64,000 bases of DNA, from the NCBI RefSeq assembly GCF_023516215.1, contig NZ_CP097349.1, positions 2,666,001-2,730,000 of the forward strand, read 5' to 3'. Positions 1,870 to 60,875 of the stretch are shown piece after piece. Within the stretch, counting starts at the first letter, position 1. The number at the start of each line of letters is the position of its first letter. Made by a program: the position numbers and the translations under genes. The notes under the pieces are model-generated. The model searched no databases. It saw only the letters and a program-made list of their open reading frames with translations, and had not been told where the DNA came from. This stretch comes from Cytobacillus pseudoceanisediminis (GTDB lineage Bacteria > Bacillota > Bacilli > Bacillales > Cytobacillaceae).

Positions 1870-2697
1870 TTAATCCCTGCGGAAGAAACCATAAACACCA
1901 GCGGTTTGGACAATATTTGTAAAGGCATTCGGATCTACTTCTTTAATAATTCTTTCAAGGTCGAATAACTCATAACGGGTGATGACAATCATCATCATTT
2001 CCTTGTTTTCATTTGTAAAAGCCCCTTTGCCGGAATGGTTGTAATTCCCCTGACCAGATGGTCATGGATGGCTTTTTTCATTTCTTCCGATTTTTTCGTT
2101 ATAATTAATGCTGTCAGTTTCTCATGTCTTGTATGAATGGCATCAATGACCCTGGTTGAGGCATAAAGGGTAACAAGAGTGTATAAAGCTTTTTCCCATC
2201 CATACAAAAAGCCAGCTGTTATTATAATAATGGCGTTAAGTGTGAAAAAATATGTACCGACAGGCTTGTCTTTCATTCGGGACAATACCATTGCGATGAT
2301 ATCCATTCCTCCTGTGGAAGCCCCCATTTCAGTGTTATCCCTACGCCAACAGCCGCAATCACACCTCCAAAAACGGCATTAAGCAAAATATCTTTTGAAA
2401 CATGAATTACCGGTATGATTTCCAAGAAAAATGACATTAAGAATACGCTTAGAAAACTGTAAATAGTAAAAGACCTTCCAACCTTCTTCCAGGCTAAAAT
2501 GGTTACAGGAATATTTAGAATGAACAGCAGAATTCCTGTTGATCCAAAATCCCCAAGAATGCTTGATAATAGCTGTGCCACACCTGTAAAACCGCTCGCA
2601 TATACATTGGCAGGTATCAGAAAAAATTCATCGCAATTGCGTTCAATATCGCGCCAATCAAAACAATAAATACTTTCTTAGTTTCTAACCAAACCAT
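1870..2697 (-). CDS. yitT: YitT-family membrane protein, three frameshifts
   Basis: Reads as a single YitT gene (DUF161 membrane part plus DUF2179 soluble tail, about 276 residues) once three single bases are restored. The breaks are at A6 2621-2626, at 2321-2329, and at C4 2022-2025 (plus-strand bases). The restored protein starts MVWLETKKVFIVLIGAIL, has five or six membrane segments, a GASTGGMDII motif, and ends in a soluble domain with ITRYELFDLERIIKEVD. The start is ATG 2697 after a GGGGG-rich ribosome site. YitT proteins are integral membrane proteins of unknown transport role. Each break lies in a short homopolymer and lacks one base, so sequence error is likelier than true decay, although three hits in one gene leave a pseudogene possible. 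Confidence 0.8.
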
Positions 2698-2740
2698 TTT
2701 TTACCCCCTGAATTTTTTTATTATTTTCTTTACCCAGTAA

Positions 2741-2972
2741 AGTGAATCTTCAATCAGCGGGGGATTTTTCCCCGCTGATTGTTAGTTGAGGCACACAGCA
2801 CAAGGAAGGCTTCGTCAGCATAATCATCAACCAAAAGCTGCAGCTTATGGGAGGAAGCGGGTCACAAAGACGTTTTCACAGCATACGGGCAGTTTGCCCC
2901 CGCTTATATCCCCTTCTATTCCTTTGATTCTGAAAGTAAGAGTCTTACTGCCCGTTGGACTTGCGAAAAGTG
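2741..2972. repeat. Dispersed intergenic repeat family A, copy 1
   Basis: Fills most of the 356-base gap between the divergent yitT and degV genes. It begins GTAAAGTGAATCTTCAATCAG and contains a perfect hairpin (AATCAGCGGGGA with its complement, 2753-2780), followed by TTAGTTGA. After about 80 further bases comes a second long-range stem, ACGGGCAGT (2885-2893) with ACTGCCCGT (2947-2955). The second copy at 7319-7464 shares these blocks in the same order. No credible gene is present here. Confidence 0.7.
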
Positions 2973-3053
2973 TCATTTTCAACACAATTCATTGTTTTTT
3001 CTCCTTGATTTCTATAAACTTAATTCATATAGTTTGAAAGCAGGTGAAAGAAA

Positions 3054-3908
3054 ATGTCAGTAAAAATTTTAGCTGACAGTGCGTGTGATCTGCCGCTAAG
3101 CTTTTATGAAGAAAATGGCGTCACACTTTTCCCATTAAAGGTTCAACTGAATGATACAGAATATGAAGATTTAGTCACCATAGAACCTAAGGATGTTTAT
3201 GATGCTATCCGTGAGGGCCAGGTGCCTAAAACATCTCAGGTATCCCCTCTCCATTTTGAGGAAACGTTCATGAAGATGGCAGAACAAAATGAAGACGGCA
3301 TTTATGTTTCTTTTTCCTCCGGACTCTCAGGTACATACCAGACCGCTGTAATGATTTTGGAGCAAGTAAAAGAGAAATACCCGGATTTCAAATTATCCAT
3401 TATCGATTCTAAGGCGGCTTCATTGGGATATGGATTAATCGTTAAGGCAGCGGCTGCTAACGCACAATCAGGCGCATCCAAGGAAGACATACAGCAAGAT
3501 ATCGAACTTCGATGCCGGCACCTCGAGAGTTTATTCACTGTAAATGATCTCGAATACCTGGCAAAAGGCGGCCGTGTTTCTAAAGCTTCCGCATTTCTAG
3601 GCGGACTTTTGAACATTAAACCTCTGCTAACTGTAGAAGATGGCAAACTTGTACCGATTGAGAAACTGCGCGGCAAGAAAAAGCTTCTTCGCCGCATCAT
3701 TGAGCTGATGAAAGAAAATGGGACTTCGTTTGAGAATCAGACGGTCGGCATCAGCCATGCTGATGATGAAGACACAGCTCTTGAAATGCAAAAATTAATC
3801 CTGGAAGAGCTAAAAGCCAAAGAAGTCTATATTACATCCATAGGCTCTGCAATCGGGTCCCATACGGGTCCAGGAACAATTGCGATTTTCTACCAAAAGC
3901 AAATATAA
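3054..3908 (+). CDS. yitS: DegV family fatty-acid-binding protein (YitS-like)
   Basis: 284 residues, full family length. DegV/FakB proteins bind a fatty acid and present it to the FakA kinase. Seen here: N-terminal ILADSACDLP, the ligand-site stretch PKTSQVSP (about residues 61-68), SFSSGLSGTYQ (about 84-94), IDSKAASLGYG, and the C-terminal IGSHTGPGTIAIFY typical of the family. The Ser/Thr residues that hold the carboxylate are present. RBS AGGTGAAAG precedes ATG 3054. It lies divergent from yitT as the yitS counterpart. Which fatty acid is bound cannot be told. Confidence 0.9.
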   Translation: MSVKILADSACDLPLSFYEENGVTLFPLKVQLNDTEYEDLVTIEPKDVYDAIREGQVPKTSQVSPLHFEETFMKMAEQNEDGIYVSFSSGLSGTYQTAVMILEQVKEKYPDFKLSIIDSKAASLGYGLIVKAAAANAQSGASKEDIQQDIELRCRHLESLFTVNDLEYLAKGGRVSKASAFLGGLLNIKPLLTVEDGKLVPIEKLRGKKKLLRRIIELMKENGTSFENQTVGISHADDEDTALEMQKLILEELKAKEVYITSIGSAIGSHTGPGTIAIFYQKQI

Positions 3909-4014
3909 ACCTAGTGAAGAATACATACTCCATTTCATTCTGACAGACAATATGATTGTACTTCAGTAATATTCTGAAGGATAAACCTCTCAGTATGAAA
4001 GGAGTATTATTATT

Positions 4015-11145: not shown

Positions 11146-12428
11146 CTACATCAAATCCTCTTCTTGGAATGATTTTGTTCTTCTAAACTGCCATAGGGCT
11201 ACCGTGATGACTATGAGTGATAGGATCATGGTAACTGCAGCGGCTTTGCCGTATTGGGCAGAAGTCATTGTCAGTTTATAAATCCAGGATATAAGAATAT
11301 CCGAACCGCCGGCATTTTGGCCCGGAATGGCCGGTCCCCCGCCATTGAACAAGAAGATAACATTAAAGTTGTTGAAGTTGAATGTATACTGAGTAATGAT
11401 AATGGGTGCCGTTGCAAAAAGAACCAGCGGCAGAGTGATTTTTGTGAATTTCTGCAGGATCGTTGCACCATCCACTGTTGCAGCTTCATAAAGCTCATCC
11501 GGAATGGACTGCAGCACACCTGTTGTCATAGCAAAAATGAACGGGAATCCAAGCCATGACTGAATGAAAATTAATGCTAAACGTGTCCAATTTTCCTCTG
11601 TCATCCATGGAACAGGACCGATGCCAATTGCATCCAGAATCGTTTTATTAATCACACCAAATGTCTCATTGAACATCCCTGAGAAAATCAGGATCGATAT
11701 AAATGCAGGAACTGCCCAAGGGAGAATGAAAATTGTTCGGATAATCGCTTTCCCTTTAAGATCCTTCTGGTTAACGAGAATTGCCAGGAAAATACCCAGA
11801 GCTACCTGCAAAGAGGTAGCTACAAAAGTCCAGACTATTGTCCAGCCCATTACGCCAAAGAAGGTTTTTCTCCATAAATCCAGCTTGAAGATATCGATAA
11901 AATTCTGAATGCCAACCCAATCTACCAGTTTTGCAGGCGGAGAATGATATAGATCATAGTTTGTAAATGCAAGAAGAACTACGAATAAGATAGGAAAAAT
12001 AACTACGAAAACTAAGAGAAAAATCCTGGTGATATCATTAAATATGGAAAACCATTATCAAGGAGATTGTGGTACTGTTCCCTGACACTGTTTAATTTCA
12101 GCCCCAAATCACGTTTTTTTCCATTATTATATGCATCATAAATATTGAAAGCATATATGATAAGTCCCAATGCTGTTACAATCAGTGCGATAATTCCATC
12201 GATCAGGAGAAAAATTGAGTGGTCCAGAACTGGAATTTCCCCCAGTGTAATAAGTCCCCAGAATCCCCAATTTAGTGTGTCATAGAATGCTGCAAAGAAC
12301 GAAACAGTAAGAATTAAGAATATGGCACCTTTCACGAATTGTTTATTATAAAACTGTCCAAATCCAGGCAGGATGGATAATAGAGCAGCATTTCTTCCAT
12401 GATTGGATGTCATTTTTTTTGTTTCCAT
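11146..12428 (-). CDS. mdxF: Maltodextrin ABC transporter permease MdxF (frameshifted)
   Basis: MalF-class permease of about 427 residues, broken by one missing base in the run at 12019-12023. The first part begins METKKMTSNHG and carries the MdxF-specific N-terminal region LSILPGFGQFYNKQFVKGAIFL. After the break the frame continues LVFVVIFPILFVVLLAFTNY and contains the EAA loop ELYEAATVDGATILQKFTKI. RBS GGGAGGCC precedes ATG 12428. The MalF/MalG pair forms the channel that takes up maltodextrins delivered by MdxE. The break is most likely a homopolymer sequencing error. Confidence 0.88.
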
Positions 12429-19763: not shown

Positions 19764-20326
19764 ATGAATAGACAGCAGCGAACAAAGCTTATTGAATATC
19801 AATCCCGTGCTTTTACAGAAGGCACTGTAGAGTATATTAATGAACAATGGGTTTTTTCGACCATGAAACAGATGAAGCATCATTATTGGATGAATTCCTC
19901 CATCAGGAAATGGAAATATTTCGCTTTAAACGGTGGAAGAAAGGCATTTTATTTGAGGATGGCAAAGTGGCCTTTGATGATGAAATATTCCACTTAAAGA
20001 ATCAGGACTCGATCCGCATCCGAAAACATCTTGTTTTCTCCCTCGAGAGATTACTGGAGGAAATGAATGATGATGCCTTTTACCAGTTCGTAACCACTTT
20101 AAATTCCATGCAATTTTCGGTTTATGACTGTATTTATTGCTATAATCAGCTGGCATTTTTCAATGATAAAGACAGAAAAAGCGGTGTGAATTTTATCGTT
20201 TTTGATAATCAGGATCATATTTGCAATGTGCAGCACCATTTTTGCTATTATGAAAAAATGAGTGATCGGTTTGAATTTACCTTAAACAGCGGAAAAAGAA
20301 TGGTTATTGAAAAGATTTCTTCATAA
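19764..20326 (+). CDS. yisN: YisN-position conserved protein (frameshifted)
   Basis: About 188 residues when one T is restored in the T6 run at 19852-19857. The start (MNRQQRTKLIEYQSRAF) follows a GGAGG ribosome site, and the restored junction reads INEQWVFFDHETDEASLLDE. The protein is soluble, rich in aromatic and acidic residues, with cysteines in DCIYCYNQ. It lies divergent from asnO, the position of B. subtilis yisN; I recall YisN as DUF2777 but cannot confirm this. Function is unknown. The break is probably a homopolymer sequence error. Confidence 0.65.
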
Positions 20327-20681: not shown

Positions 20682-23602
20682 CTAGCTGTGCGTTTGGGCA
20701 TATTTAGATAAGCCTTCCTCAAACTCACTGGTCATAAGCGGCTTATGAATATAGAAGCCTTGTGCATAATGGCATTTCAATTCTTTTAACAGCTCAATCT
20801 GCTCCTGTGTTTCCACCCCTTCTGCCACGACTTTAACAGCAAGTCCGTGTCCCATGGTGATGATGGCTTTTACAATGGCAACATCGGATGTGTTTAATCG
20901 CAGATTATTAATAAAAGACCGATCGATCTTTAATGTATTGATTGGAAGGTCCTTTAAATAACTTAGGGAAGAATAGCCTGTGCCAAAATCATCAATTGAT
21001 ACTTTGACTCCTATATTCTGCAGCGACTGCATGACTTGTATACTGTGCTCAACATTTCTAAGCATCGTGCTCTCCGTCAGCTCCAATGTTAAATATTGCG
21101 GCTCCATACCGGAAAGTTCCAATGCCATCTTAACTTCTTGAAGAAATCCTGGCTGCTGGAATTGATAGGCCGATACATTCACAGAGATGGAAAGCGATTT
21201 ATAGCCAAGCATTTGCCAACGTTTATTCTGTTTACAAGCCGACCGCAATACCCAGCCGCCGATATCCTTAATGAGACCTGTCTCTTCTGCAAGAGGAATA
21301 AATTCACCGGGTGAAACAAGTCCAAGTTTTGGATGATTCCAGCGGATTAGGGCTTCGCTCCCGTATAAATTGCCAGTTTCAAGATCAATTAAGGGCTGAT
21401 AGCATAGAAAGAATTCATTTTTCTGCAAAGCTTTTCTTAAGTAGCTTTCAAGCTCAAGTCTGACCATTGCCTGCTGATTCATTTCCATTGAGAAAAAGGT
21501 GACCCTGTTTCCTCCCTGCTGCTTGGAGCGATTTGTGGCAATATCCGCATTTTTCAGCAGCAAATGCTCATCGGCCCCATCATCTGGATGCAGGCTCGCA
21601 CCAATGCTGGCAGTGACAATAAACTCCTGATTCGACTGAGATATAGGATGCGATATTTCATCTAATATCTTTTTGGAGACATTCATAACCTTCTCGATAG
21701 TTGCTTCCCTTGATAATACTAAAGTAAACTTATCACCGCTGAACCTTCCCAAATAAGAACCCGATGGCAAAACCCTTTCTATTCTTTCGGAAATTTCCTT
21801 TAACACCATATCCCCAGCAAAGTGACCCAGACTATCATTTATGATTTTAAATCGGTCGATATCAATAGAAAGAACGGCAATTTTCTTCTGTTTTTTTCTG
21901 GCTCTCTTTAATTGCATTTCCAATTGTTCTGTAAACTTCATTCTGTTTGGCAGCCCCGTATCCCGGTCAAAAAAAGCCAGTTCTGTTATCTTCTCTTCAA
22001 TCTTTTTCTGTTCTGTAATATTTCTGCCAATTCCATAAATACCTACACATTCCCCATTAACAGTAATCGGAATATTTTTGAGCTGAAAAAGATTGGTTTC
22101 GCCAGATTTTGTATTGATATAAACGTTATAATATTGCTCTTTCCCTCTTAACGCCCGGTAAAAGTGCATTCTGACCCTTGGCACATCCGCATCACGCACA
22201 TATGAAAGAGCTGTTTTTCCGATTATTTCATCCTGCATGAACCCAAAAGTTTTCTCGAATGCAGGGTTAATACTTGTGAAATTCCCCTTCAAATCGGTTG
22301 AATAAACAAAATCTGCATTATTATCAAATAGAGATTTATAATATTGTTCAGACATTTTCAGACTGCTGTTTAATGCATTAATATCATCCTGAGAAGCATG
22401 CATTAAATGAGTCAAAGAAGTAATCGTTTTAAATTGGGCCGTCTTTTCATAAGAATATAGTTTTGGCTGATTCTTTTTTGATTCAGCAACATTTTCTGAT
22501 AGAGCAAGATATGTAAGAGAATGTCCGACCATCTGCGGCACTCTGCCTTTTCGGAAAGAAATTTCCCCGTATGAAAAGAACCCATTCGCCGGGGCTATCC
22601 CCTGGAACATCTCCAGTTCTTTTTCCGTAAAATCTCTTGCAAACTGTTTTCGTGCCATACAATTGTATATAAATATGCTTTCAGGAGCTAACTGGTCAAG
22701 CTCTTTTAATTCCTGTAAAGACCGTTCAATGATGTCTTCCAGATTAGCATAAGCAAACGTGAGTGTGTCTCCTTCTTCAACCTTCCTGTTTACTTTAATA
22801 GCACCATTTTCGAGTGGTTTTATAATAAAAACAGAAACTTTTTCCCCGCGGTACTTTAACAGGAAAGGGAATTCAGTACCTGATTCCGGTAAATCCTTAA
22901 TAAAAGCCTCACCCAAATAGTGCTTTAGAATATTTAAGGGCTTCTTATGATCTAAGGAATAGATGATAGATCCTTCGGCCTTTGTAACAGTAAAGCTTTT
23001 TCCAATCTCCTGCCACTGATAATTTGCAAACGGACGGACTGAAAGATGGCCGCTTTGAAGCGCAACTGCTGCAAGCCCATCGCTGGTGAGTCCATCTTGA
23101 GTAAAAGCTAAGCCCTCCTGAAATAAGCCATTATCTCCCGCAAGGCCCCCTGAAATCACTATATCTGGATGGGTTTCATTAATCCCCTCCAGCAAGGCTG
23201 TGGAATCTACATCAAATCCAGCAGGGAAAATAATTACAGCTTCTGTATTGAAGATAGCAAGTTCCCGTGCTAAGGTCTTGCCCATTTCATAACTATTCTT
23301 AAAATCAGTCCTGTTAAACAGGAAAGATTTTAATTCTGTTTTTCAAAGACAGTAAAGCAGATCACTGTTTGTTTTTCCGTAATCCGGCCTTCATGAATTT
23401 CACCAGAAGTCGAACAGCCTGCTATTTGTGCAAATGGAAGCTTGTCTGCCAGTTCTTTTTGAAGTTTCGCGATATTTAGACTTTCAGGGTTTCCTGTAAA
23501 AACCTGCACCAGCAAATTAGGATATTCATCTAATTCGTTCAAGTCTATAAATCTATTCAGCTGGCTGGTATTCTTATATAAACATGAAATCGTCTTTGCC
23601 AT
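20682..23602 (-). CDS. FIST-PAS-GGDEF(degenerate)-EAL signalling protein (frameshifted)
   Basis: About 973 residues once one base is restored in the run at 23339-23343; the junction then reads VFEKTELKSFLFNRTDF. Domains in order: FIST N and C (residues 1 to about 370), PAS (about 410-535, SLFDNNADFVYSTDL), GGDEF (about 543-705) and EAL (about 715-960). The GGDEF active site is replaced by SGDKF, so cyclase activity is unlikely. The EAL site is intact (GSEALIRW, LELTEST, DDFGTGYSSL, VVAEGVETQ), so it should hydrolyse cyclic di-GMP. No membrane span is evident. FIST is a putative small-ligand sensor, possibly for amino acids. It has no obvious operon partner. Confidence 0.88.
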
Positions 23603-24357: not shown

Positions 24358-25265
24358 TTATTTTTCTATACAATTTGTTAGAGTTCCTATTTTTTCAACT
24401 GTAATTTCCACTTTATCTCCCGGCTGAAGAAAGCGTGGAGGCTTGAAGCCTTTGCCTACACCTGCGGGAGTTCCAGTAGCAATAATATCTCCCGGCTCAA
24501 GGGTCATGCCTTTTGACAGGACCGAGATGATTTCTTCGATTGGGAAGATAAAGTTCTCAGTATTTGAACTTTGTCTCAATTCTCCGTTTACCTTTGTTTG
24601 AATATCAAGCTGATTCGGGTTTTCAATTGCAGATGAATGGACGATCCATGGACCCATCGGGCATGTGGCATCCAGGCTTTTTCCGATAAAAAATTGCTTA
24701 TGGCGTGACTGCAGATCCCTTGCTGTCACATCATTAATAATGGTATAGCCAAAGATGTGATCCAATGCTTCTTCTTTGGGGATAGCCCGTCCTTTTTTCC
24801 GATTACAACGGCAAGCTCTCCTTCATAATCCAGCTCTGCTGTAACATTATGATGATTTAATACCGTTTCATTATGGCCTATTACCGTTGTTGGCGATTTC
24901 GTAAATACCATTATATGCTCAGGAATGTCTTCTTTGCTTCCCATCTCAATTGCATGCTCGGCATAATTCTTGCCTACACAAAAGATATTCTTATCGGGAC
25001 GGGGAATCGGGGCCTCCAATGCAACAGAAGCGAGCGGCCGGAAGAGTTCTTCCCTGCCGGGATTGCTGCTTAGCCAATCTTTTAATCTATGTACCTTCTC
25101 AATGAACTTATCTCCTAAGGCAATACATTCCTTCAAAGCCGCTGGCAAATCACTTTTGCCTTCCATTTTTACTAAAGCTGCATTTAGCGGAACAACCTTT
25201 GTGCCGGTTCCGTCCAATAAACCTGCCACACTTCCGCTGCCATCCTTAAAAGTAACAAACTTCAT
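24358..25265 (-). CDS. yisK: FAH-family hydrolase/decarboxylase YisK (frameshifted)
   Basis: About 302 residues with one base missing in T6 at 24793-24798. The restored junction reads GKKGRAIPKEEALDHIFGYT. The N-terminal lid is followed by the fumarylacetoacetase-like fold: NIFCVGKNYAEHAIEMG, the metal ligands in LDYEGELAVVIG, NDVTARDLQSRHKQFFIGKS, and DIIATGTPAGVGKGF. B. subtilis YisK decarboxylates oxaloacetate and binds Mbl; that is established for the homologue, not shown here. The start is ATG 25265 behind GAGGTGAT. The break is probably a sequence error. Confidence 0.88.
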
Positions 25266-25349
25266 TCCCATCACCTCATTTTATTTTTCACTTTTTTAGT
25301 ATAATATAAATTTTCAGATTTTTGGACTATTTATAAGTGAACCCAAATA

Positions 25350-30224: not shown

Positions 30225-30236
30225 AGGATGTTTTAC

Positions 30237-37700: not shown

Positions 37701-38235
37701 ATTTGCCTGCAAGGGATTCTTCAAAATTTTTATAGATTAACTCAAGGTCATGAAGCTTGTCCTGAAGTGCCTTGTTCGATTTTCCTGTTCCTGAGAGCTG
37801 CTGCTGCCTTTCAGCCAGTTCATCGGGTGCTACACAATAACGTTTGAATTCAGTCATCATTTGTTCAATTTGCTGAATAAAACCATTTTTATCGGCAGCC
37901 CTCTGAAAAAGCTTCAGCTCATCCTTTTTATCTTCGATGATCTTGCGGATAAGCATGCTGATGCCAACACTGTTAAGATGATATCTGCTCATGCCTCCTG
38001 TTTCCTGAAGAATTCTCCAGGCAAGGCGCGTGAAAGAATATACCTGGCTGCGTATCATTCCGCCAAGGCCGGGCGTGGTAATTAATTTATATTCTGAAAG
38101 GAACGTCATTTGTTCCGGAACTAAATAAATGATTGGATCTCCATCCGGGTTAAGCCGCAGTTCATCGCGGATTTCATTTAGGCAGTATTCCGTTTTGCCG
38201 CTTCCGGACCGGCCTATCAATAAACGTACGGTCAT
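34729..38235 (-). CDS. addB: ATP-dependent helicase/nuclease subunit AddB
   Basis: 1168 residues. The N-terminal P-loop is LLIGRSGSGKTEYCLNEI. The C-terminal nuclease has RVIDYKSSSKDL, and the cysteines of the iron-sulfur cluster are visible in FHSCPFSHFA and in CTFCAYKSVCQF. AddB forms the dual nuclease-helicase with AddA; in homologues the B subunit recognises Chi. The start is ATG 38235 behind AAGGAGG; nine further codons upstream lack a site. In B. subtilis addAB is also under ComK, and comK lies 10 kb away here, but no clear ComK box was seen upstream. Confidence 0.96.
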   Translation of the reverse strand: MTVRLLIGRSGSGKTEYCLNEIRDELRLNPDGDPIIYLVPEQMTFLSEYKLITTPGLGGMIRSQVYSFTRLAWRILQETGGMSRYHLNSVGISMLIRKIIEDKKDELKLFQRAADKNGFIQQIEQMMTEFKRYCVAPDELAERQQQLSGTGKSNKALQDKLHDLELIYKNFEESLAGKYTDSEDYFRLLAEKASHSEYLKNAEVYIDGFYSFTSQEYSIVEQLMKQCKNVTITLTLDKQFKHSATEELHLFRMAGENYQTIKEMASRNRLGIEEMVITEQKRWCSPSLRHLEAHFDSRPAEAFLGEADIHIGQAVNRRAEIEGVARKINKLVRTDGYRYRDIAVLARNGQDYHDMIETVFHDYEIPFFIDQKRTMLNHPLVELIRSTLEIINGNWRYEPIFRAVKTELIFPSKLNAGKLREQMDRLENYVLAYGIQGDKWTKKKRWIYRRIRGLEFEAVAQTDSEKRIEDELSDLREMITGPILRLHRRLKKAADGRGYCEALFLYLEELDVPVKIEKWKSAEEEKGNLVKSREHGQAWNAIMELLDQYVEMLGEEEVTLKRFASVLDAGLESLRFTLVPPAIDQVMAADLERSRLTDIKAAFVIGLNEGVIPAKFSEDGVLADDDREILNTNGMKLAPGSRTRLLDEEFIAYKAFVTPSEKLFISYPLANEEGKALMPSPYIKRLGDLFPDCRQHSFMSDPAELPETEQLEYADNLNTALSYLTSQLQLKKRSYPIYDLWWDVYNCYLNNEHWRRPALKVLSSLNYENRTLQLGADISKELYGDHIQASVSRMELFHSCPFSHFAQHGLRLRERQVYRLEAPDIGDLFHAALKFIAETVMTQKLSWTDMTREQCEILAKEAVEMLAPKLQNEILLSSNRHHYIKRKLEQIISRASYVISEHAKSSGFSPVGLELGFGPKGELPSLVFPLKNGTKMELVGRIDRVDKAQDTNGTFLRVIDYKSSSKDLNVSEVYYGIALQMLTYLDIIIAHSNSLIGTEADPAGVLYFHVHNPIVSTSKMLTLEDIEQELYKKFKMNGLLLGDENVIRLMDQTIETGDSSIISAGFKKDGTLSKRSKVASKQEFDYLRRYVRKMYRNTGNMITEGDVKIAPYKMKEKTPCTFCAYKSVCQFDESLETNDYRLFVPKPKEDMIEIIKKEVEGDENGHTA

Positions 38236-38382
38236 ATTTTTCCTCCTTAAAAAAACTCTCACTCTATCATTATTTTATCATATAAGCTGTTCAATTTTTC
38301 GAATGGGGTTCTTCAAAATTGTGGAAATGACAACTTACCTATACGAGGTTTTGTGCATAAAGTATATCGGCAGGTGATAAGG

Positions 38383-39536
38383 ATGATTTCAAAACAGATC
38401 CTGATTGCAACTTCAGTCATTTTGACAGTTACAGGAGTTTTTGTGGCCAGCAATATTTATACACTAATCCCTATTTACGGGGATATTGCTGACTCTTTTC
38501 AGGTAAATGAAAATTATATTGTTGGCGGTGGAAGCCTGTTTGCATTTTTTTATGCAGCCGGCCTGCTATTCTTTGGCCCTGCTTCCGATACCTTTGGCAG
38601 GCGCAGAATTATTATTACAGGTTTGTTTGCTTCTGCTTTGTCCACTTGTGCTGTAGGGCTTTCTCCTAATGTAGAGGCTCTCTATATAACCAGGTCGATT
38701 CAGGGGCTGACTCTTGGGAGCTTTGCTCCTGTTGCCTTCGCTTATACCTTTGATCTTTTCAGGCCGAGGGGCCGCACCCTGCTGCTTGTTTTTATCAATA
38801 CAGGATTCCTTGTCGCCGGCATTCTTGGACAGCTGATCAGTTCGACAATTACTTTTTATTTTAAATGGAACTATGCTTTTTATTTCTTTGCGTTTTGCTA
38901 TTTTATTCTTTTCCTTGTATCGTATAAAATACTTCCAGGCACTTCTCCTCCTTCCAAATCAGGGGTTTCCGTTATTTCTATTATGAAAAAACTATTAATG
39001 AAGGGAAGCCTGCTCCAAAGCTATGCTATTACCTTTACTTTGCTGTTTGCCTTTGTAGCTTTTTACGATGCAATAGGAAGGAATTTCGAGGGAACCATGG
39101 AGGAGCTGTTCACATTAAGAGCTGTGGGACTAATCGGGGCGCTGCTGTCTCTCTTTACGGGAAAATTAATTGAGCGGATTGGTGCCCATTCGACATTAAA
39201 GCTTGGTTTACTTTTAGGGATTTTCAGCATTATTAATATGTTTTTCTTCAGCAGCACTATTGCCTTAATGGCAATTTCCATTATGTTTGTGGCTTCCATA
39301 TCCCTTCTTGTTCCCACTGTTATCACACTGATTGGCATGATTGCAGGGGCTGACCGTGCAAAAGCGCTTTCTCTCTATTCTTTTTTCTATTAACCGGAGC
39401 AAGCCTTGCCCCGCCGGCAGTTATGATTCTTGAATATTATTATGTACTGTATCTGCTTCTTGCCTTTTTCCTGACGAATATCATTCTTAGCTATTACTTG
39501 TCAAAAGAATTTACTTTTGTCAGTCAGCCAGAATAA
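38383..39536 (+). CDS. MFS transporter (frameshifted)
   Basis: About 384 residues with twelve membrane spans when one T is added to the T6 run at 39381-39386. As written the frame stops at 39393 after 337 residues; the continuation reads LTGASLAPPAVMILEYYYVLYLLLAFF and ends VSQPE at 39536. The MFS loop 2-3 motif is FGPASDTFGRRRIIITG, and span 1 begins ILIATSVILTVTGVFV. It belongs to the drug-antiporter-like (DHA) group by look; the substrate is unknown. It stands alone between addB and a GNAT gene. Confidence 0.82.
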
Positions 39537-40109: not shown

Positions 40110-40163
40110 TTTCTTCACCTCCGGAAAAATCAATTCTGCAGGATGGGATCCGCTTATTGGATA

Positions 40164-44223: not shown

Positions 44224-45135
44224 TTATTTCGAAAGAAACTCATGGATAGCCGCTTTGTTTGCCTCTTTATCAATGCCTAAAACAGCAGCACCATTAATTC
44301 TCTGGTTTTCAAATGTTCCATCAACAGGAACACGAAGAGTCTCTACATTCCTGTTATCCTTAGATAAGAAATCTTTCCCGATATAAAGAATATCTCCCGT
44401 ATCCATATTAGTATTTACAAATGGAGTTACTACCCCGATTAGTTTCGGAAGCTTTGTAATGGTCTGAAGGCTTGTAAACTGGCTTGCTACTTCTTTCATT
44501 ACCTTCTGCTGGCGTTCTACTCTTCCAAAATCCCCTACGGCATCCTGCCTAAACCTGACATACCCAAGGAGATGCTCTCCATCAAGGCGCTGCAGACCCG
44601 GTTCCAGAGTAACACCGATATTGGCAGACATTCTTTTTTCTACATCAATTTCTACCCCTCTTGGAAAAGCTTCATCAATTAAATGAACAAAGCCTTCGAA
44701 ATCAACAATTGAGTAATATTTAATATCTATATCAAAGTTTTCCTTAATCGTTTGCCTTAATAACTCAGGACCACCATAAGCAAGAGCTGAATTTATTCTG
44801 TTTTGCCCATGGCCCGGTATGTCCACGTACATATCTCTCATAAAAGAAATAAGTTTATATGTTCCCTTTTCAGGATGATATTGGGCAACCATGATGGTAT
44901 CTGCCCTTGATTTCTCTTTTCCCCTTGCGTCACTTCCAAGGATCAGAATATTCGTTCCTCCATATTTATCTTTTTCACCGTTAAATTCAAACTCTTCTGT
45001 CTGTATATTTGCCTCTCCCTCTGTCTGGGAAACACCTTGCTTGAACTGAAAATACGAATAGCCAAGGGTTCCTGCAATCAAGAGAAACAGAATCAGGAGG
45101 ACGGACTTCCATTTTTTTCTTTTTCTTCTTTTCAT
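44224..45135 (-). CDS. LytR-CpsA-Psr (LCP) family ligase
   Basis: 303 residues. Short basic cytoplasmic start, one membrane span (VLLILFLLIAGTLGYSYF), then the LCP domain: NILILGSDARGKEKSRADTIMV (phosphate-binding Asp/Arg), SFMRDMYVDIPGHGQNRINSALAYGG and RFRQDAVGDFGRVERQQKVM. LCP enzymes attach teichoic acids or capsule to peptidoglycan. The start is doubtful: ATG 45135 has no clear ribosome site, while GAAAGGAC lies before an out-of-frame ATG at 45151. An extra base in the A-rich stretch 45112-45130 could explain this. Confidence 0.88.
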   Translation of the reverse strand: MKRRKRKKWKSVLLILFLLIAGTLGYSYFQFKQGVSQTEGEANIQTEEFEFNGEKDKYGGTNILILGSDARGKEKSRADTIMVAQYHPEKGTYKLISFMRDMYVDIPGHGQNRINSALAYGGPELLRQTIKENFDIDIKYYSIVDFEGFVHLIDEAFPRGVEIDVEKRMSANIGVTLEPGLQRLDGEHLLGYVRFRQDAVGDFGRVERQQKVMKEVASQFTSLQTITKLPKLIGVVTPFVNTNMDTGDILYIGKDFLSKDNRNVETLRVPVDGTFENQRINGAAVLGIDKEANKAAIHEFLSK

Positions 45136-45387
45136 GTCTATCTGATCTCATAAGAATAAGTCCTTTCTTTGCAGTTAAATTATCATTCTGCCGCGGGTAT
45201 GAAAATACCTTCACCTATATTCGACTTCGGTTTCCATAAAAAAGTTTCGATATCACTGCTGGTATATCCTGTATACCCTTATACTTTGCAGATGAATGGG
45301 TTTCGTTGCAACTTATTTTAAATAGTTTCTTTACCCTATATGAAAACTGATTTCATTGATATATCGGCGATTTTGATGTTACTTTAC
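45136..45387. other. Gene-free stretch upstream of the LCP gene
   Basis: About 250 AT-rich bases with no credible reading frame. It should hold the LCP gene promoter, but no -35/-10 pair is convincing. Confidence 0.5.
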
Positions 45388-49470: not shown

Positions 49471-50114
49471 TTGGACAGCAGGCATTTATTTTTAATGGGC
49501 GGAAGCCCTCCATTCGGGCAAAGGCTTGGAAAAAGTTTACGGAGCTGGCTTGTGGAGCGGCTGGCAAAATAGCTATACTCTTTTTGGAAAGGGAAGGCTG
49601 GGAAGGCTATATGAATAAGTATACTTCCGGCTTAACTCAAAATGGCGCAAGGAATTTCTGTTATCTGCCTCTTTCCCCTGCACCACCAGAATCTTTTCTT
49701 CAAGAATTGGTGTCCTGTACCGGGGTCATCATTGGAGGCGGTGAAACGGAAAAATACAGAAGTTATATTGTTGATACTGAAGTGGGAGAATACATTGGCA
49801 AGATGTACAAGAACGGTATTCCTGTAGCAGTTTTTTCGGCAGGTGCCCTAATTATCCCGGAGCATTGCATAATTCCCCCTATTGATACATCTGAAAAACA
49901 GCATCTCTTTCTGAAAGGTATCGGGTTAATCAGGGATTGTGTCATTAGTGTCCATTTCACTAAATGGAATGAAGGGGAAAATTTAAAGAGGGCAGCGGGG
50001 AAAACCAATGTCACGGCTGGTTATGGAATTGATGATGATGCAGGCATTTATTTTTATAATGAAATTCAGACTGATAGTGAAGGCGGCATACATATTTATA
50101 AGAATGAAATATAA
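49471..50114 (+). CDS. Peptidase S51/class I GATase-like protein (frameshifted)
   Basis: About 214 residues after one base is restored near 49513-49516. TTG 49471 follows AGGAG and reads MDSRHLFLMGGSPP; the second frame supplies AKAWKKFTELACGAAGKIAILFLEREGWEGYM. The nucleophile elbow is VAVFSAGALIIPEHC, with GVIIGGGETEKYRSYI before it, the peptidase E/cyanophycinase-like layout. It is likely a small cytoplasmic serine hydrolase or dipeptidase; the substrate is unknown. This is the one break that is not in a run of four or more bases. Confidence 0.75.
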
Positions 50115-52645: not shown

Positions 52646-52725
52646 AATGCTCACCGCCTTAAAAAATATAATACCAGCCTGAAAATTATACTATAATAGA
52701 CTTAATATTAAAGCATGATGCGCTG

Positions 52726-52741
52726 GTATAGTATATTATAC
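52726..52741. promoter_or_regulatory. Palindrome between azlC and the XRE-cupin gene
   Basis: GTATAGTATATTATAC is a near-perfect 16-base inverted repeat in the 135-base gap between two divergent genes. It could be the operator of the XRE-cupin protein and contains promoter-like TATA sequence. No experimental parallel is known to me. Confidence 0.4.
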
Positions 52742-52780
52742 ATTCGTGCGTTATATTACACAATAAACCTGGAGGATATA

Positions 52781-53331
52781 ATGGAGAATATTCAAAAAAG
52801 TATTGGGGAAAACCTAAGGAATATTCGAAAAACAAGAGGATACAGCCTGGATGCAGCGGCAGAAATAACCGGGGTCAGCAAGGCGATGCTGGGACAGATT
52901 GAGCGGGGGAATCCAACCCGACTGTCACCACGCTTTGGAAAATCGCGAGCGGCCTTCAAGTTTCATTTTCCTCACTTATTCATGAGGAACCATCAGATGT
53001 CCAACTCATAGAATTGAAGACTCTAACTCCAATAATGGAGAGCATGGGCGATTACAGGGTTTATCCCGTGTTCCCTTTTGACCCCCGCAAGAAATTCGAG
53101 ATCTTCACAGTCGAAATTGAATCGGGCTGCCAGCATACATCTGATAAACATAATGAGGGTGTTGAAGAATATATCACTGTCATGTCCGGAACTCTTGAAA
53201 TAGAGATCGGAGACCAGCGAATCACTGTCCGCTCCGGCAATTCAATAAAATTCTCAGCAAATAAAGCGCATACGTATAAAAATATCGGAGCCGAACTGAT
53301 TCGCTACCAGGCAGTCATGTATTATCCATGA
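52781..53331 (+). CDS. XRE-cupin transcriptional regulator (frameshifted)
   Basis: About 183 residues with one G restored in G5 at 52905-52909. Residues 1 to about 65 are a helix-turn-helix: IGENLRNIRKTRGYSLDAAA and ITGVSKAMLGQIERGESNPT, restored across the break. Residues about 105-180 are a cupin: SGCQHTSDKHNEGVEEYITV and IEIGDQRITVRSGNSIKFSA. Such proteins sense a small molecule in the cupin and repress a neighbouring operon, here probably azlCD. ATG 52781 follows CTGGAGG. Confidence 0.85.
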
Positions 53332-53430: not shown

Positions 53431-54234
53431 TTAGATTAATACAGCCTTGTCACTGCTCATTTTCTCTCCACGGATTTTTTGGAATTCTTCAAGCAGTTTT
53501 TCGACGGTCAAATCTTTCTTTTGGTCTTCATTTGTTTCAAAAATGATCTGGCCCTTGTCCATCATGATCAGCCTATTTCCCAGGTCAAGTGCCTGCTGCA
53601 TATTGTGGGTCACCATTAATGTAGTAAGTTTATATGTTTCCACAATCTCTTTCGTAAGGCTGGTAATCAATTCTGCACGAGCCGGGTCCAAGGCAGCGGT
53701 ATGTTCGTCTAAAAGCAATATTTTAGGCTCTGTAAAAGTCGCCATCAACAGGGATAATGCCTGCCTCTCCCCGCCTGACAGCAGTCCAACTTTTGCTGAA
53801 AGCCTGTTTTCCAATCCAAGATGCAGCATTTCCAGCTTTTCCTGGAAAAAGTCGCGTCGTTTCTTGGAAACTCCTTTGCGAAGGCCACGTGCCATAGTTC
53901 TCGAATAAGCAATGGCAAGATTTTCTTCTATGGTCATGGAAGGGGCTGTTCCTGCCATCGGATCCTGGAAGACACGTCCGATCAGCCTGGATCTTTTATG
54001 TTCTTTCACAAGAGTGACATCAGTGCCATCAACCAGCACTTCTCCTATATCAGGAATCAATTTGCCGGAAATCATATTCATAAGAGTAGATTTTCCCGCT
54101 CCATTACTGCCAATAACCGTCATGAAGTCGCCTGGCTTTAAATGAAGATCGATTCTGTGAAGTGCTGTTTTTTCGTCTGGAGTTCCCTCATTAAACACTT
54201 TATGAATCTGATTTAATTGCAGCAAGATGTTCAC
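53431..54234 (-). CDS. ABC transporter ATP-binding protein (TrpZ-like)
   Basis: 267 residues. Walker A GSNGAGKSTLMNMI, Q-loop VFQDPMAGTAPS, signature LLSGGERQALSLLM, Walker B KILLLDEHTAALDP and switch His in MVTHNMQQAL. Translation probably starts at GTG 54234 (MNILLQLNQIHKVFNEG). In the sequence as given its frame is open into the permease gene, producing an apparent 561-residue fusion. I read that as the result of one missing base in T6 at 54256-54261, because the alternative frame ends the permease normally at 54200. Confidence 0.85.
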   Translation of the reverse strand: MNILLQLNQIHKVFNEGTPDEKTALHRIDLHLKPGDFMTVIGSNGAGKSTLMNMISGKLIPDIGEVLVDGTDVTLVKEHKRSRLIGRVFQDPMAGTAPSMTIEENLAIAYSRTMARGLRKGVSKKRRDFFQEKLEMLHLGLENRLSAKVGLLSGGERQALSLLMATFTEPKILLLDEHTAALDPARAELITSLTKEIVETYKLTTLMVTHNMQQALDLGNRLIMMDKGQIIFETNEDQKKDLTVEKLLEEFQKIRGEKMSSDKAVLI

Positions 54235-55220
54235 CACTTTTCCCGTAGGCATTAGTTTTTTCGCTTCCGCTAATCTCCGCCGCTTTCTCTGCTTTTCTTT
54301 TTGCTGCTGAATAAGCTTTGGCAGAATCAGCGCACCAATCACGATTACTGCTGTGATTAGCTTCATATCTCCTGTTTCAAGAAATTCAACTCTCAATGCA
54401 AGAGTGACTATAATACGATATAAAATGGCTCCTCCAATGACAGCCAGTGTTGCTCGGACAATAGTTTTTGCGCCAAAGATTGCTTCTCCAATGATTACGG
54501 ATGCAAGTCCTATGATAATCATCCCGATTCCCATTCCGACGTCACTGAATCCGTTATACTGTGCCACTAATGCTCCAGAAAAAGCTACAAGTGCATTTGA
54601 AATGCCCAAGCCAGCTATCTTCAGGATATCTGTATCAGCTGAAAAGCTTCGGATCATCGTCTCATTGTCGCCTGTTGCACGTATAGCCAGACCAATATCT
54701 GTCTTTAAGAAAAGATCAATCAATACTTTCGCAGCAAAGGCTAATATTAGCATTAAAATCAGAATCCCCCAGGTCTTTGGGATGAAACCCATTCCCAATG
54801 CCCCAAACAGGCTTTGAATAGCCTGATCAATCCCAAGTCCCTGCCAGAATGCTGTAAGCTTTGTGATAGCCGTTTCCTCAGACAGCAGTGGAACATTTGA
54901 CTTGCCCATAATCCGGAGATTGATAGAGTACAATGCGATCATCATTAATATTCCGGACAAGAGGGCATTAATTTTTCCTTTTGTATGAAGAAGGCCTGTA
55001 AGGCAGCCTGCTGCAAACCCCGCAAGCAATGCTGTCATTGTTGCCAAAAATGGATTGTATCCTCCTACTATCATGACAGCTGCTACAGATGCGCCCGTTA
55101 CAAAGCTTCCATCCACCGTCAGATCGGGAAAATCCAGTATTCTGAATGATAGGTAAACCCCAATGCCATTAAGGCATAAATTGCTCCTGCCTCAATGGAA
55201 CCAAAGATCGCTGTTGGCAT
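54200..55220 (-). CDS. ABC transporter permease (TrpY-like, two frameshifts)
   Basis: About 340 residues. It starts MPTAIFGSIEAGAIYALMAL at ATG 55220. One base missing in C4 at 55158-55161 is needed to join this to SFRILDFPDLTVDGSFVTGA and the rest of a BPD_transp_2-type permease with eight or more spans (GILMMIALYSINLRIMG, GIGMIIIGLASVIIGEAIFG). A second missing base in T6 at 54256-54261 restores a normal end (GEHLAAIKSDS, stop at 54200-54202) that overlaps the ATPase start. The importer probably takes up an amino acid such as tryptophan; this is inferred from operon type only. Confidence 0.82.
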
Positions 55221-57380: not shown

Positions 57381-58935
57381 CTATTTAGTCTGTAGAACCT
57401 GATTCTTCAATGCTCTCCTCAAAATTTTACCAGTTGTGTTCTTTGGCAGCTCTTCTAAAAACTCGATCGATGACGGCACTTTATATTTAGCCAGATGCTC
57501 AGCACAGTATGCAAGCAGCAGTTCTTCTGTCAGCTGAGGATTTTTAGTTACAACATAGCATCTCACCGCTTCACCCAGATTTGGGTCAGGCACACCCAAT
57601 ACAGCAACTTCAACTACATCCTCGTGATTATAGAGCACCTCTTCAACTTCCCGCGGGTACACATTATATCCGCCGACTAAAATAAGGTCCTTTTTACGGT
57701 CAACGATATAAAAATAACCTTCCTCATCCCTTTTTGCGAGGTCTCCTGTATAAAGCCAGCCATCGCGAATAGTTGCCGCGGTTTCTTCCGGCAGCTTGTA
57801 GTAGCCTTTCATCACGTTGGGCCCGCGCACAATCAGTTCACCTACTTCGCCAACGGAAACTTCCTCTCCCAGTTCATTTACGACCTTATTCTCAACGTTC
57901 ATAATGGATTGCCCGATTGAGCCTGCTTTCCGCGGCTTATCAAGCGGATTGAAGCAGGTAACCGGAGAAGCTTCTGAAAGACCATATCCTTCTGAGACAA
58001 TGACATTGAATTTTTTTCAAAGCCATGAAGAAGTGCAACAGGCATGGCAGCACCGCCCGAAATGCAAAGCCTTAACGATTTCAGATCTTCCGTATTTCCA
58101 TCATCAAACTGAAGAAGGAAATTGTACATGGTCGGAACGCCGGCAAAAACAGTAGGTTCATATTTTTTAGCGAGTCTAAATATTTCTTTCGGGCTGAATT
58201 TTGGATCTATTAAAATAGTAGCCCCATTCATCAGCGGTGCATTGAGAGCAACCGTTAAACAGAAGACATGAAACATAGGCAAAGTAGTGATAACCCGGTC
58301 ATTTTCGTTCATGTGCAAATAGTCGCTGACATCCTTTGCATTGCAGTAGAGGTTTTTATGTGTCAGCATGGCACCCTTCGGCTTGCCTGTCGTACCGGAT
58401 GTATATAGGATAACGGCTGTTTCATCATCTTTGAGCTCAGGGCCTTTAAAATCCAAATCTCCTGAAGCTATCACTTGTGTAAACGATTTCATTTTTGAGA
58501 AAGCTGATAATGCAGACGGATCCGCTTTTGAAGCCTGTCCCTGCGGGGTTTCACAAATAATAAAGTTCTCCACTCTTGGAAGAGCCTGATGCATCTTCTC
58601 AATCAAAGGCACTAACAGGTCAAGCGTAACAAGCGCTTTTACATCACCATTATTAACAATGTAGCCAATTTCATCCGGTGTATAAATTGGGTTGATCGGT
58701 ATAACAGTTGCTCCAAGCCGCAGTGCTCCATGCAGGCCGATGACAAAATGCGGCGAATTCCCAAGTAAAAGAGCAATATGATCTCCTTTTTCACTCCCAG
58801 CTTTGAGAGCCCATCCGCAAATTTAGTCACAGCACCATCAAGCTCCCCATATGTACTGGACTGGTCCATAAAATAATAGGCAGTCTTATTGCCCATTTTG
58901 ATCGCCGTTTCATGCAGATGCTCTGTTAAATTCAT
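57381..58935 (-). CDS. lcfB: Long-chain fatty-acid-CoA ligase LcfB (two frameshifts)
   Basis: About 518 residues after restoring one base in T5 at 58787-58791 and one in T7 at 58011-58017. The restored joins read [15 protein letters not shown] and [20 protein letters not shown]. Adenylation motifs: [59 protein letters not shown] and the lysine in [13 protein letters not shown]. Sequence and neighbours (lplJ downstream on the map, yhfN further on) match LcfB/YhfL. It makes acyl-CoA for beta-oxidation. A FadR box lies 18 bases before the start. Both breaks look like homopolymer errors. Confidence 0.9.
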
Positions 58936-58970: not shown

Positions 58971-59100
58971 TTTTTATTAAATAAATTTTCTAAATATATT
59001 ATATTGAAAGAAAGTTTTGTATTCAAGTAGGAAAGCGAATTGTTCACAATTTCTTTTTTATAGAGGACTGCCTTTCGCAAAACTTTATATAAATATAAGA

Positions 59101-59124
59101 AAAGCCGGCATAATGCCAGCTTTC
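59101..59124 (-). terminator. Rho-independent terminator of lplJ
   Basis: AAAGC, GGCA pair with TGCC, GCTTT (59101-59123) around a 3-base loop with one mismatch; 16 bases after the lplJ stop. Confidence 0.7.
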
Positions 59125-59139
59125 CAATAAATGATCCCA

Positions 59140-60129
59140 TTAATAAACCAGGTTGATAAATTCGGTCTTTGTCACATTTCCGAAGTAATGCTTAATGTCC
59201 ACTCCTTCAAGGGCATTTTCAATCTCTGACTTTTCATAGCGAATTCCTGTAAGCTTGCTTTCAATTTCGCTTACATCTCCAACCCCAAAGAAGTCTCCGT
59301 AAATTTTACATTCCTCAATTTTCCCTTTTGTGACGTTAAGTCTAATATCAATTTGCCCCACTGGGAAACGATGCGAGTGCTGAAGATCAAATTTGGGTGA
59401 TTTTCCATAATTCCAATCCCAGTTTTGATAGCGCTCCTTGGACAGCTGATGAATTTTTTCCCAATCATCATTCGTAAGCCTGTACTCTGCAATTTCATCT
59501 AAATCACCAAAAATATTCTTAAGCAGCAAAGTGCGAAATTCTTGAATTGTGATTTTTTTATCCAGGAACTCTGAGATATTAGCAACACGGCTTCGAATAG
59601 ACTTAATGCCTTTCGATTCAATTTTATCTTTCTTTACCTTTAATGCCGAAACGACATTTTCTATTTCGGAATCAAACAAGAGGGTACCATGGCTAAACAT
59701 TCTGCCTTTGGTAGAAAACTGGGCATTCCCGGATATCTTTCTGCCTTCTGCCATCAGGTCATTTCGCCCGCTCAATTCAGCATTAACACCAAGCTTCTGC
59801 AAAGCTTCTACAACCGGCTCGGTAAACTTTTGGAAGTTGTGGAAGCTTTCTCCATCATCTTTTGTGATAAAGCTGAAGTTGAGATTGCCTAAATCATGAT
59901 AAACAGCCCCGCCGCCAGAAAGCCTTCTGACCACATGGATACCATTGTTCTCGACATATTCAGTATTAATCTCTTCAACTGTATTCTGGTTTTTTCCAAT
60001 AATAATGGAAGGTTCATTAATATAAAAAAGCAAATAGGTTTCTTCAATATCAAGATTCTTTAGTGCATATTCCTCAATAGCAAGGTTAATTCTGGGATCT
60101 GTGATTCCCTGGTTGTCAATAAAAAGCAT
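59140..60129 (-). CDS. lplJ: Lipoate-protein ligase LplJ
   Basis: 329 residues, normal length. N-terminal EEYALKNLDIEETYLLFYINEPSIIIGKNQN, the lipoyl-AMP site RRLSGGGAVYHDLGNLNFSF and GRNDLMAEGRKISGNAQFS with the catalytic lysine are all present; the C-terminal accessory domain begins near residue 245. It attaches free lipoate to E2 subunits and GcvH. It starts 12 bases after the yhfI stop (operon yhfI-lplJ), as in B. subtilis. RBS GAGGAGG precedes ATG 60129. Confidence 0.94.
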   Translation of the reverse strand: MLFIDNQGITDPRINLAIEEYALKNLDIEETYLLFYINEPSIIIGKNQNTVEEINTEYVENNGIHVVRRLSGGGAVYHDLGNLNFSFITKDDGESFHNFQKFTEPVVEALQKLGVNAELSGRNDLMAEGRKISGNAQFSTKGRMFSHGTLLFDSEIENVVSALKVKKDKIESKGIKSIRSRVANISEFLDKKITIQEFRTLLLKNIFGDLDEIAEYRLTNDDWEKIHQLSKERYQNWDWNYGKSPKFDLQHSHRFPVGQIDIRLNVTKGKIEECKIYGDFFGVGDVSEIESKLTGIRYEKSEIENALEGVDIKHYFGNVTKTEFINLVY

Positions 60130-60141
60130 CTGTTTTCCTCC

Positions 60142-60875
60142 TCAAAAAGTATGGGACCATTGATAATCCGCAATAGAAATAGGACCGGTATATTTTGTTG
60201 AAGCCTCTTCCTTCAGCTTTCGCAGTTCACCATAATGAGGCAAATGAGTCAGCAGCAAATTTTTCACCTTTGCTTTGCTGGCCAATGTTCCAGCATCCAA
60301 GCTTGTCATATGCCCAGCATTTTTTCCATTTTGATGACCGTAAAAATTGCATTCGCAAACTAATAAATCAGCATTTTCGCTAAATGCTGCCAGCTCTTCT
60401 TTATATGACGTATCAGCCGTATAAATAAGCGTTTTGCCGTCTGCTTCAATTCTCATTGCATAGCAAGGCACAGGGTGATTAGTCTTTAAAAAGCGAATTT
60501 GAAACGGGCCTGCAAAGAGAGTGCCATCAGGATCATAGCAGACTCCTTTTGTGATATCCTTGTATGTAAATTTGGCAAATTCATACTGATCAAGAGAATG
60601 ACCATAGATCGGGAGGGTATCTGTTTTCCTGCCTAAAAAACTCTGAATGAGCCTGGCATGCTGCAGAACCCCTATATCCGCAATGTGATCTGGATGGTAA
60701 TGCGAGATAATCACTGCATCCAATTCTTCTGGCTGAAAAAATTCTGCATTTTTGAAAGTACGCCGCTTCCGCAGTCGATCAGCAAATGAAACCCATCATG
60801 CTCCAGCAAATACCCTGAACTCGCCCCATCAGCTTTAGGATAACCGCCCCAGCTCCCAATTACAGTTAACTTCAT
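60142..60875 (-). CDS. yhfI: MBL-fold metal-dependent hydrolase YhfI (frameshifted)
   Basis: About 244 residues with one base missing in A6 at 60736-60741. The first frame supplies MKLTVIGSWGGYPKADGASS and LLIDCGSGVL; the join reads MQNFFQPEELDAVIISHYHPDHIADIG. The zinc motif HYHPDH, the GHMTSLDAGTLASKAKVK stretch and LLLTHLPHYG mark a metallo-beta-lactamase fold of the RNase Z-like/YhfI group. The substrate is unknown. It is upstream of lplJ on the same strand. RBS AGGAGG lies before ATG 60875. The break is probably a sequence error. Confidence 0.87.

What the first reader, a model, noticed from the sequence alone, without database searches (positions are those of the whole stretch)
1870..60875. 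Eighteen one-base deletions in fourteen genes: the assembly, not the genome, is probably broken
Frame breaks occur in yitT (3), mdxF, yisN, the FIST/EAL gene, yisK, an acyl-CoA synthetase, gerPB, gerPF, an MFS gene, an S51-like gene, the XRE-cupin gene, a permease (2), lcfB (2) and yhfI. Every one needs exactly one added base, and all but one lie in a run of 4-7 identical bases. Adding it restores family-length protein each time. True decay would give deletions and insertions, nonsense changes and non-homopolymer sites, and would not hit gerP, lcfB and mdxF while leaving 7.2 kb of addAB intact.
Basis: partly seen in the sequence, partly recalled or inferred. Interest (0 to 1): 0.7.

Follow-up and report, generated by a model that had tools for sequence, protein, structure and literature searches.

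The report
Long-read assembly errors, not pseudogenes
The broken genes in this stretch of a Bacillus relative are almost certainly sequencing mistakes that shorten runs of identical letters, so the living bacterium very probably has intact genes and claims of gene loss from this assembly would be wrong.

Summary
All 18 frame breaks exist, and all lie in runs of 4-7 identical bases. None is shared: in 143 informative site-by-relative comparisons with 13 relatives, none has the window's run length. A same-species chromosome (NZ_CP015506.1, labelled Cytobacillus oceanisediminis 2691, 99.6% identical) has these genes open. At least one more break exists, in an LCP-family gene whose run is two bases short. 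Over 326 kb aligned in seven regions this assembly is the shorter one at 144 of 160 gaps, and at 120 of 124 in runs of 4 or more. The chance of shortening climbs with run length (19 of 22 at G/C 6, 17 of 28 at A/T 8), is the same inside and outside genes, hits 23S rRNA copies, and puts a frame-breaking gap into 55 of 234 long ORFs. A split mutL made a mismatch-repair mutator the serious rival; polarised substitutions (62 on this branch, 73 on the other, half of the 62 transversions) speak strongly against it. Best explanation: an unpolished nanopore-type long-read consensus (platform inferred; no reads seen). Ordinary artefact; interest low.

The parts
1869..2697 (-). yitT family gene (276 aa in relatives), three frame breaks
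   Evidence: Pfam YitT_membrane + DUF2179 on the G021 copy
11146..12428 (-). mdxF/MalF-like sugar permease (427 aa in G021), one frame break
19764..20326 (+). yisN-like gene, DUF2777 (187 aa), one frame break
   Evidence: Pfam
20682..23602 (-). FIST-PAS-GGDEF-EAL gene (973 aa), one frame break
   Evidence: Pfam
24358..25274 (-). yisK-like gene, FAA hydrolase family (305 aa), one frame break
   Evidence: Pfam
26735..28326 (-). acyl-CoA synthetase (530 aa), one frame break
28766..29004 (+). gerPB (79 aa in G021), one frame break
   Evidence: Pfam GerPB
30228..30454 (+). gerPF (75 aa in G021), one frame break
   Evidence: Pfam gerPA/gerPF
30993..38262 (-). addA and addB, no break; about 1.4 expected from their run content
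   Evidence: UvrD/PDDEXK on AddA
38353..39536 (+). MFS transporter gene (394 aa in G021), one frame break
44224..45214 (-).
49471..50114 (+). S51-like peptidase gene (214 aa), one frame break
52715..53331 (+). XRE-cupin regulator gene (205 aa in G021), one frame break
54200..55220 (-). BPD_transp_2 permease gene (340 aa), two frame breaks
57381..58935 (-). lcfB-like long-chain acyl-CoA ligase (518 aa), two frame breaks
60142..60878 (-). yhfI-like metallo-beta-lactamase-fold gene (245 aa), one frame break

Best explanation
The breaks are errors of the assembly. Its consensus understates the length of homopolymer runs, by one base as a rule and two now and then. The chance grows from under 0.1% at A/T runs of 4 to 7 of 7 at runs of 9-10, and faster for G/C runs. 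A gene holding a long run is then read out of frame. About a quarter of the longer ORFs in the sampled regions carry such a gap, so the same is expected genome-wide. The pattern is that of a long-read-only (most likely nanopore R9-type) consensus never polished with accurate short reads. Shown: direction, dependence on run length and base, indifference to coding, private to this assembly, rRNA hit. Inferred: the platform, the lack of polishing, and the extrapolation to the whole genome; no reads or assembly record were available.
For: Window with flanks vs same-species G021: 47 gaps in 98 kb, 42 with the own assembly shorter. Pooled 325,897 aligned columns: own shorter at 144, longer at 16; in runs of 4 or more 120 vs 4. 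Shortened/total by G021 run length: A/T 4: 1/3497, 5: 6/1421, 6: 17/471, 7: 32/169, 8: 17/28, 9: 5/5, 10: 2/2; G/C 4: 6/803, 5: 14/179, 6: 19/22, 7: 1/1. Coding 74 observed vs 76.6 expected, non-coding 47 vs 46.5: no sign of selection against frame breaks. 23S rRNA against one G021 copy: 6 of 6 own copies examined (of 8 found) are short at one G/C run and 5 of 6 at a second; 0 of 16 other copies examined (5 G021, 5 G006, 6 G001) has a gap. 55 of 234 ORFs of 150 aa or more have a frame-breaking gap, 71 gaps, all own shorter, 65 of 71 in runs of 4 or more; among them menD (twice), rlmB, yacP, ispF near its C end, a ribonucleotide reductase alpha subunit, thiC, glgB; clpB is hit too. Published nanopore behaviour matches: lengths underestimated, accuracy dropping above length 5, C/G runs worse than A/T (PMC8486125, passages); a long-read draft with 23.3% pseudogenes before correction (PMC12007338, passages).
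Against: No reads, no assembly record and no second assembly of the same strain were seen; G021 differs from it by 0.1-1.3% in the aligned pieces, so it is another strain. G021 has a private difference of its own that splits a GNAT gene (39943). 24 of the 144 shorter gaps are not in runs of 4 or more, and 6 of the 71 ORF gaps are not, one of them 29 bases long; part of these and of the 16 reverse gaps must be real strain differences. A 13-kb piece at 97.08% identity was dropped from the pooled count (limit 98.5%); it has 24 gaps, 15 own shorter and 9 own longer, mostly outside runs. G011 also has a broken S51-like gene, so that gene can decay. G005, another assembly, has gaps in 6 of 6 23S copies examined, mostly not in long runs. 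Other long-read platforms were not excluded as the source.
Confidence: 0.98

Rival explanations
1. The strain is a real mismatch-repair mutator: mutL is split and mutS loses its end, so replication slippage shortened runs across the genome and truly broke the genes.
For: mutL is split into 333 + 312 aa and the mutS open frame is 866 aa against 885-886 in three relatives; indel rates in repair-deficient strains also rise with run length (PMC8510543, passages).
Against: Window substitutions polarised with up to five outgroups: 62 on this branch (31 transitions, 31 transversions) against 73 on the G021 branch (41, 32); 35 ambiguous, 23 with too few outgroups. No longer branch, no excess of transitions. 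Repair-deficient E. coli lines gave 30,061 substitutions and 5,324 indels (PMC8510543); transversions were 0.01 to about 0.025 of substitutions in repair-deficient B. subtilis (PMC11890065, passages). Slippage should also give insertions; here 120 to 4. The mutS and mutL breaks sit in runs that are 7 and 6 long in G021, the same error class.
Confidence: 0.01
2. Ordinary pseudogene decay of genes this strain no longer needs.
For: Some hit genes look dispensable (transporters, gerP); the S51-like gene is also broken in G011.
Against: No insertions: 71 of 71 frame-breaking gaps in ORFs of 150 aa or more have own shorter (this reference choice favours breaks in own, but non-coding gaps are 46 to 9 as well). 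Central genes (menD twice, rlmB, RNR alpha) and rRNA are hit; rates are equal in and between genes. Nonsense substitutions were not counted.
Confidence: 0.005
3. The short runs are real and the genes are rescued by transcriptional slippage or programmed frameshifting.
For: Slippage on A/T runs is a known way for AT-rich endosymbionts to tolerate frame breaks (recalled, no call).
Against: All 18 sites would have to be unique to this strain while 13 relatives, one of them 99.6% identical, have the longer run; G/C runs are hit more than A/T runs of the same length and rRNA is hit.
Confidence: 0.003
4. The relatives are wrong and this assembly is right.
For: G021 has a private split in a GNAT gene and G005 has damaged 23S copies.
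Against: Thirteen distinct genomes (no two alike above 98% in the checks) agree in frame at the 18 sites, and the ORFs they give are the conserved ones.
Confidence: 0.002

Closest known systems
Homopolymer-length errors of nanopore consensus sequences (R9-type chemistry)
   Same: Mostly shortening, steep rise with run length, G/C runs worse than A/T, frame breaks in many genes (PMC8486125 passages)
   Different: No difference seen; the platform of this assembly is not documented here
Gene-fragmenting errors in long-read drafts (Kastor example, PMC12007338, passages)
   Same: 23.3% of genes were pseudogenes before correction there; 55 of 234 (23.5%) ORFs carry a frame-breaking gap here
   Different: There checked with reads and a short-read assembly; here by relatives only, and by a different measure
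MutSL-deficient hypermutator genomes
   Same: Run-length dependent indels; mutL appears split in this assembly
   Different: No excess of substitutions or transitions, almost no insertions in runs, rRNA affected

Membership tests
Long-read homopolymer compression artefact | Differences are private to one assembly and nearly all in one direction | tested here: met
   0 of 143 comparisons share the window length; 120 vs 4 in runs
Long-read homopolymer compression artefact | Error chance rises steeply with run length, G/C worse than A/T | tested here: met
   table; published behaviour in PMC8486125 (passages)
Long-read homopolymer compression artefact | Indifferent to function: coding, non-coding and rRNA alike | tested here: met
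Long-read homopolymer compression artefact | Accurate reads of the strain show the longer runs | not testable with these tools
   no reads held
Mismatch-repair mutator | Excess of substitutions on the branch, nearly all transitions | tested here: not met
   62 vs 73 substitutions, 31 ts: 31 tv
Mismatch-repair mutator | mutS or mutL inactive | tested here: inconclusive
   frames broken in the assembly, but at runs of the error class
Genuine pseudogenes | Insertions as well as deletions, and sparing of central genes | tested here: not met
   71 of 71 gaps own shorter, central genes hit
Genuine pseudogenes | Nonsense substitutions among the lesions | not tested
   not counted separately
Phase-variable contingency loci | Run length at a locus varies out of frame among relatives | tested here: not met
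   relatives agree in frame at the 18 sites

The most novel reading that the evidence does not exclude
One of the longest runs, for example in the LCP or lcfB-like gene, is a true phase-variable switch in this strain whose signal is buried under the assembly errors.
Probability: 0.01. Interest if true: 0.3.

Novelty: not a real feature. Interest (0 to 1): 0.08.

Why it matters
Anyone who takes this assembly at face value would report a natural mismatch-repair mutant with broken gerP, menaquinone and glycogen genes and with about a quarter of its longer genes damaged. The search tool holds one genome per species, so this assembly may stand for its species in collections, and the error would spread to gene-presence tables built on it. 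Comparing run lengths with a relative is a cheap way to flag such genomes; the completeness score (99.58) does not reveal the problem.

Tried and rejected
A DNA-alignment count of out-of-frame ORFs was too noisy at 90-95% identity. The window still stood out with G006 as reference (15 of 51 vs 6-12 of 52-67), G001 (18 of 47 vs 7-12 of 50-65) and G009 (14 of 44 vs 5-11 of 48-67), but paired gaps inflated the counts, so the protein-level count replaced it. The run at 40173 was first taken for a coding break and rejected, because the GNAT gene starts downstream of it in G006, G001 and G009. An ORF holding sigH is among the 55, but its gap (codon 38 of 258) falls before the SigH match, which begins at residue 51, so sigH itself is probably not broken. 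One search lists further gaps inside relatives' ORFs that G021 and the window share, or that only one relative shows (for example near 28752, 30193, 26551-26650, 42222-42310); many are in ORFs of 60-130 aa that need not be genes; none was counted. Short gaps at the edge of a 251-aa ORF (1096) and in a 57-aa ORF (2901-2929) were not counted as breaks. DNA search of plasmids with addA gave nothing. A paper search for the essentiality of ispF and menD listed 5 papers, none read or used, so essentiality is recalled. A paper search on Bacillus oceanisediminis genomes gave 37 papers, 15 listed, none seen to describe this assembly. The names R9 and PacBio/HiFi as sources, and slippage in endosymbionts, rest partly on recall.
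Full report
What the window is. It is bases 2,666,001-2,730,000 of the 5,347,902-base contig C1 of a 5.69-Mb, two-contig genome with completeness 99.58. Its AddA is 100% identical to that of NZ_CP015506.1, labelled Cytobacillus oceanisediminis 2691, reached here as G021. The two align over the whole window within one piece at 99.585%, so G021 serves as a second assembly of the same species, though of another strain. Other same-genus assemblies at 95% (G005, G006) and 90-91% (G001, G009, G011) were fetched for the same region, and named 24-kb loci (L036-L041, L051) cover its middle part. These 13 relatives are distinct genomes by the pairwise checks made.

The observation. All 18 breaks in 14 genes exist, all in window runs of 4-7 identical bases. 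Between 4 and 13 relatives are informative per site, 143 comparisons in all: 141 are one base longer and two are two shorter (G006 and L051 at gerPB, the same reading frame); none has the window's length. A 19th break lies in an LCP-family gene, where the run is two bases short and an alternative start hides the damage.

Not chance, and not just this window. I compared the own assembly with G021 in seven regions: the window with flanks, the rpoB/ribosomal region, the origin region and four others. Of 404 kb of own sequence, 325,897 columns aligned in pieces of at least 1,500 columns above 98.5% identity. One 13-kb piece at 97.08% was dropped by that limit; it has 24 gaps, 15 own shorter and 9 longer. 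In what was kept, the own assembly is shorter at 144 gaps and longer at 16; in runs of 4 or more the ratio is 120 to 4 (sign test 9e-31). The shortened share climbs with run length: A/T 1/3497, 6/1421, 17/471, 32/169, 17/28, 5/5, 2/2 for lengths 4 to 10; G/C 6/803, 14/179, 19/22, 1/1 for lengths 4 to 7. In 404 kb of own chromosome no A/T run exceeds 8 and no G/C run exceeds 6, against A/T up to 10 and G/C up to 7 in 400 kb of G021. The 80-kb samples of G005 and G001 show no A/T run of 9 either, so the ceiling alone is weak in small samples.

No sign of selection. With pooled rates per run length, runs inside ORFs were shortened 74 times (76.6 expected) and runs between them 47 times (46.5 expected), runs across an ORF edge set aside. 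Real mutations that destroy genes should be rarer in genes. Of 234 G021 ORFs of at least 150 aa wholly inside the aligned pieces, 55 carry a gap that is not a multiple of three in the own assembly: 71 gaps, none with an extra base, 65 of them in runs of 4 or more and one 29 bases long. Taking G021 ORFs as reference favours finding breaks in own, so the non-coding counts (46 shorter, 9 longer) are the fairer measure of direction. The hit genes include menD (two gaps), rlmB, yacP, ispF close to its end, a ribonucleotide reductase alpha subunit, thiC and glgB, and clpB. Menaquinone and isoprenoid genes are essential in B. subtilis as I recall it; whether the RNR gene has a second copy was not checked. 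23S rRNA: measured against one G021 copy, 6 of the 6 own copies examined (of 8 found) are short at one G/C run and 5 of 6 at a second; none of 5 other G021, 5 G006 and 6 G001 copies has a gap. Four of the ten G021 copies, all 2,936 bases long, and a 2,785-base match in G001 were not examined. G005 has 3-19 gaps in 6 of 6 copies examined, mostly not in long runs.

The serious rival. The assembly shows mutL split in two and mutS shortened at its end. A mismatch-repair mutator would produce run-length dependent indels. It would also produce many more substitutions, nearly all transitions: repair-deficient E. coli lines gave 30,061 substitutions and 5,324 indels (PMC8510543, passages), and transversions were 0.01 to about 0.025 of substitutions in repair-deficient B. 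subtilis (PMC11890065, passages). In the window, substitutions polarised with up to five outgroups number 62 on this branch (31 transitions, 31 transversions) and 73 on the G021 branch (41 and 32); 35 were ambiguous and 23 had too few outgroups. The branch is neither longer nor richer in transitions. The mutS and mutL breaks themselves lie in runs that are 7 and 6 long in G021, so they look like the same error and not its cause.

Protein-level control. Of G006 proteins conserved as one ORF in at least three other assemblies, 11 of 48 present in the window are split over ORFs, against 1 of 65 in G021, 0 of 52 in G005, 3 of 61 in G001, 2 of 60 in G009 and 0 of 63 in G011; the three of G001 are marginal, at 0.91-0.92 of the length. 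With G009 and G001 as references the window gives 8 of 42 and 8 of 42, the others 0 or 1.

Mechanism. In nanopore sequencing the current hardly changes while a run of one base passes, and the speed of passage is not constant, so run length is hard to tell and tends to be understated; accuracy falls sharply above length 5, and C and G runs are worse than A and T runs (PMC8486125, passages). R10.4 resolves most runs below 11 in the consensus and owes its gain over R9.4.1 largely to this; a high-quality label can be reached despite many frame errors (PMC9262707, passages). A published long-read draft had 23.3% pseudogenes before correction (PMC12007338, passages); here 23.5% of the ORFs tested carry a frame-breaking gap. 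The dependence on base and length therefore fits an unpolished R9-type consensus; the platform is inferred.

Verdict. The gene breaks are very probably not features of the organism.

Noticed in passing
G000:C1:2129464-2133757 (L186, L190): mutL appears split and mutS shortened in this assembly; an automatic reading would call the strain a natural mutator. A further MutS-type match at C1:5192167 has a shorter open frame (457 aa) than its likely counterparts in relatives (790 aa).
   Followed up: partly
L119, L124, L129, L134, L139, L143 (G005): Six of six 23S copies examined in the related assembly G005 carry 3-19 gaps, mostly outside long runs, while 0 of 52 conserved proteins were split in its copy of this region: an error of another kind, perhaps in repeats.
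   Followed up: no
window 39570-40133 (-); L146:12509-13176: A GNAT acetyltransferase gene is open here but split in NZ_CP015506.1 by a one-base difference; G005 has it split too.
   Followed up: partly
L042, L094, L043, L058, L038: Naming trouble: the record labelled C. oceanisediminis 2691 matches the window at 99.6%, but C. oceanisediminis CGMCC 1.10115 only at 75-82%; '2691 strain DE0166' has 68% identical AddA; records named Pseudomonas, Chryseobacterium and Paenibacillus carry AddA 87%, 68% and 93% identical.
   Followed up: no
G000 and G021, whole genomes: Eight near-full 23S copies in this genome against ten in the same-species chromosome, and one own copy is 2,920 bases; copies may be collapsed in the assembly.
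   Followed up: no
window 26695-26707 and around 42219-42318: Stretches with length differences among relatives in both directions, unlike the 18 coding sites; the second touches the start of an ORF of varying length (267-337 aa).
   Followed up: no
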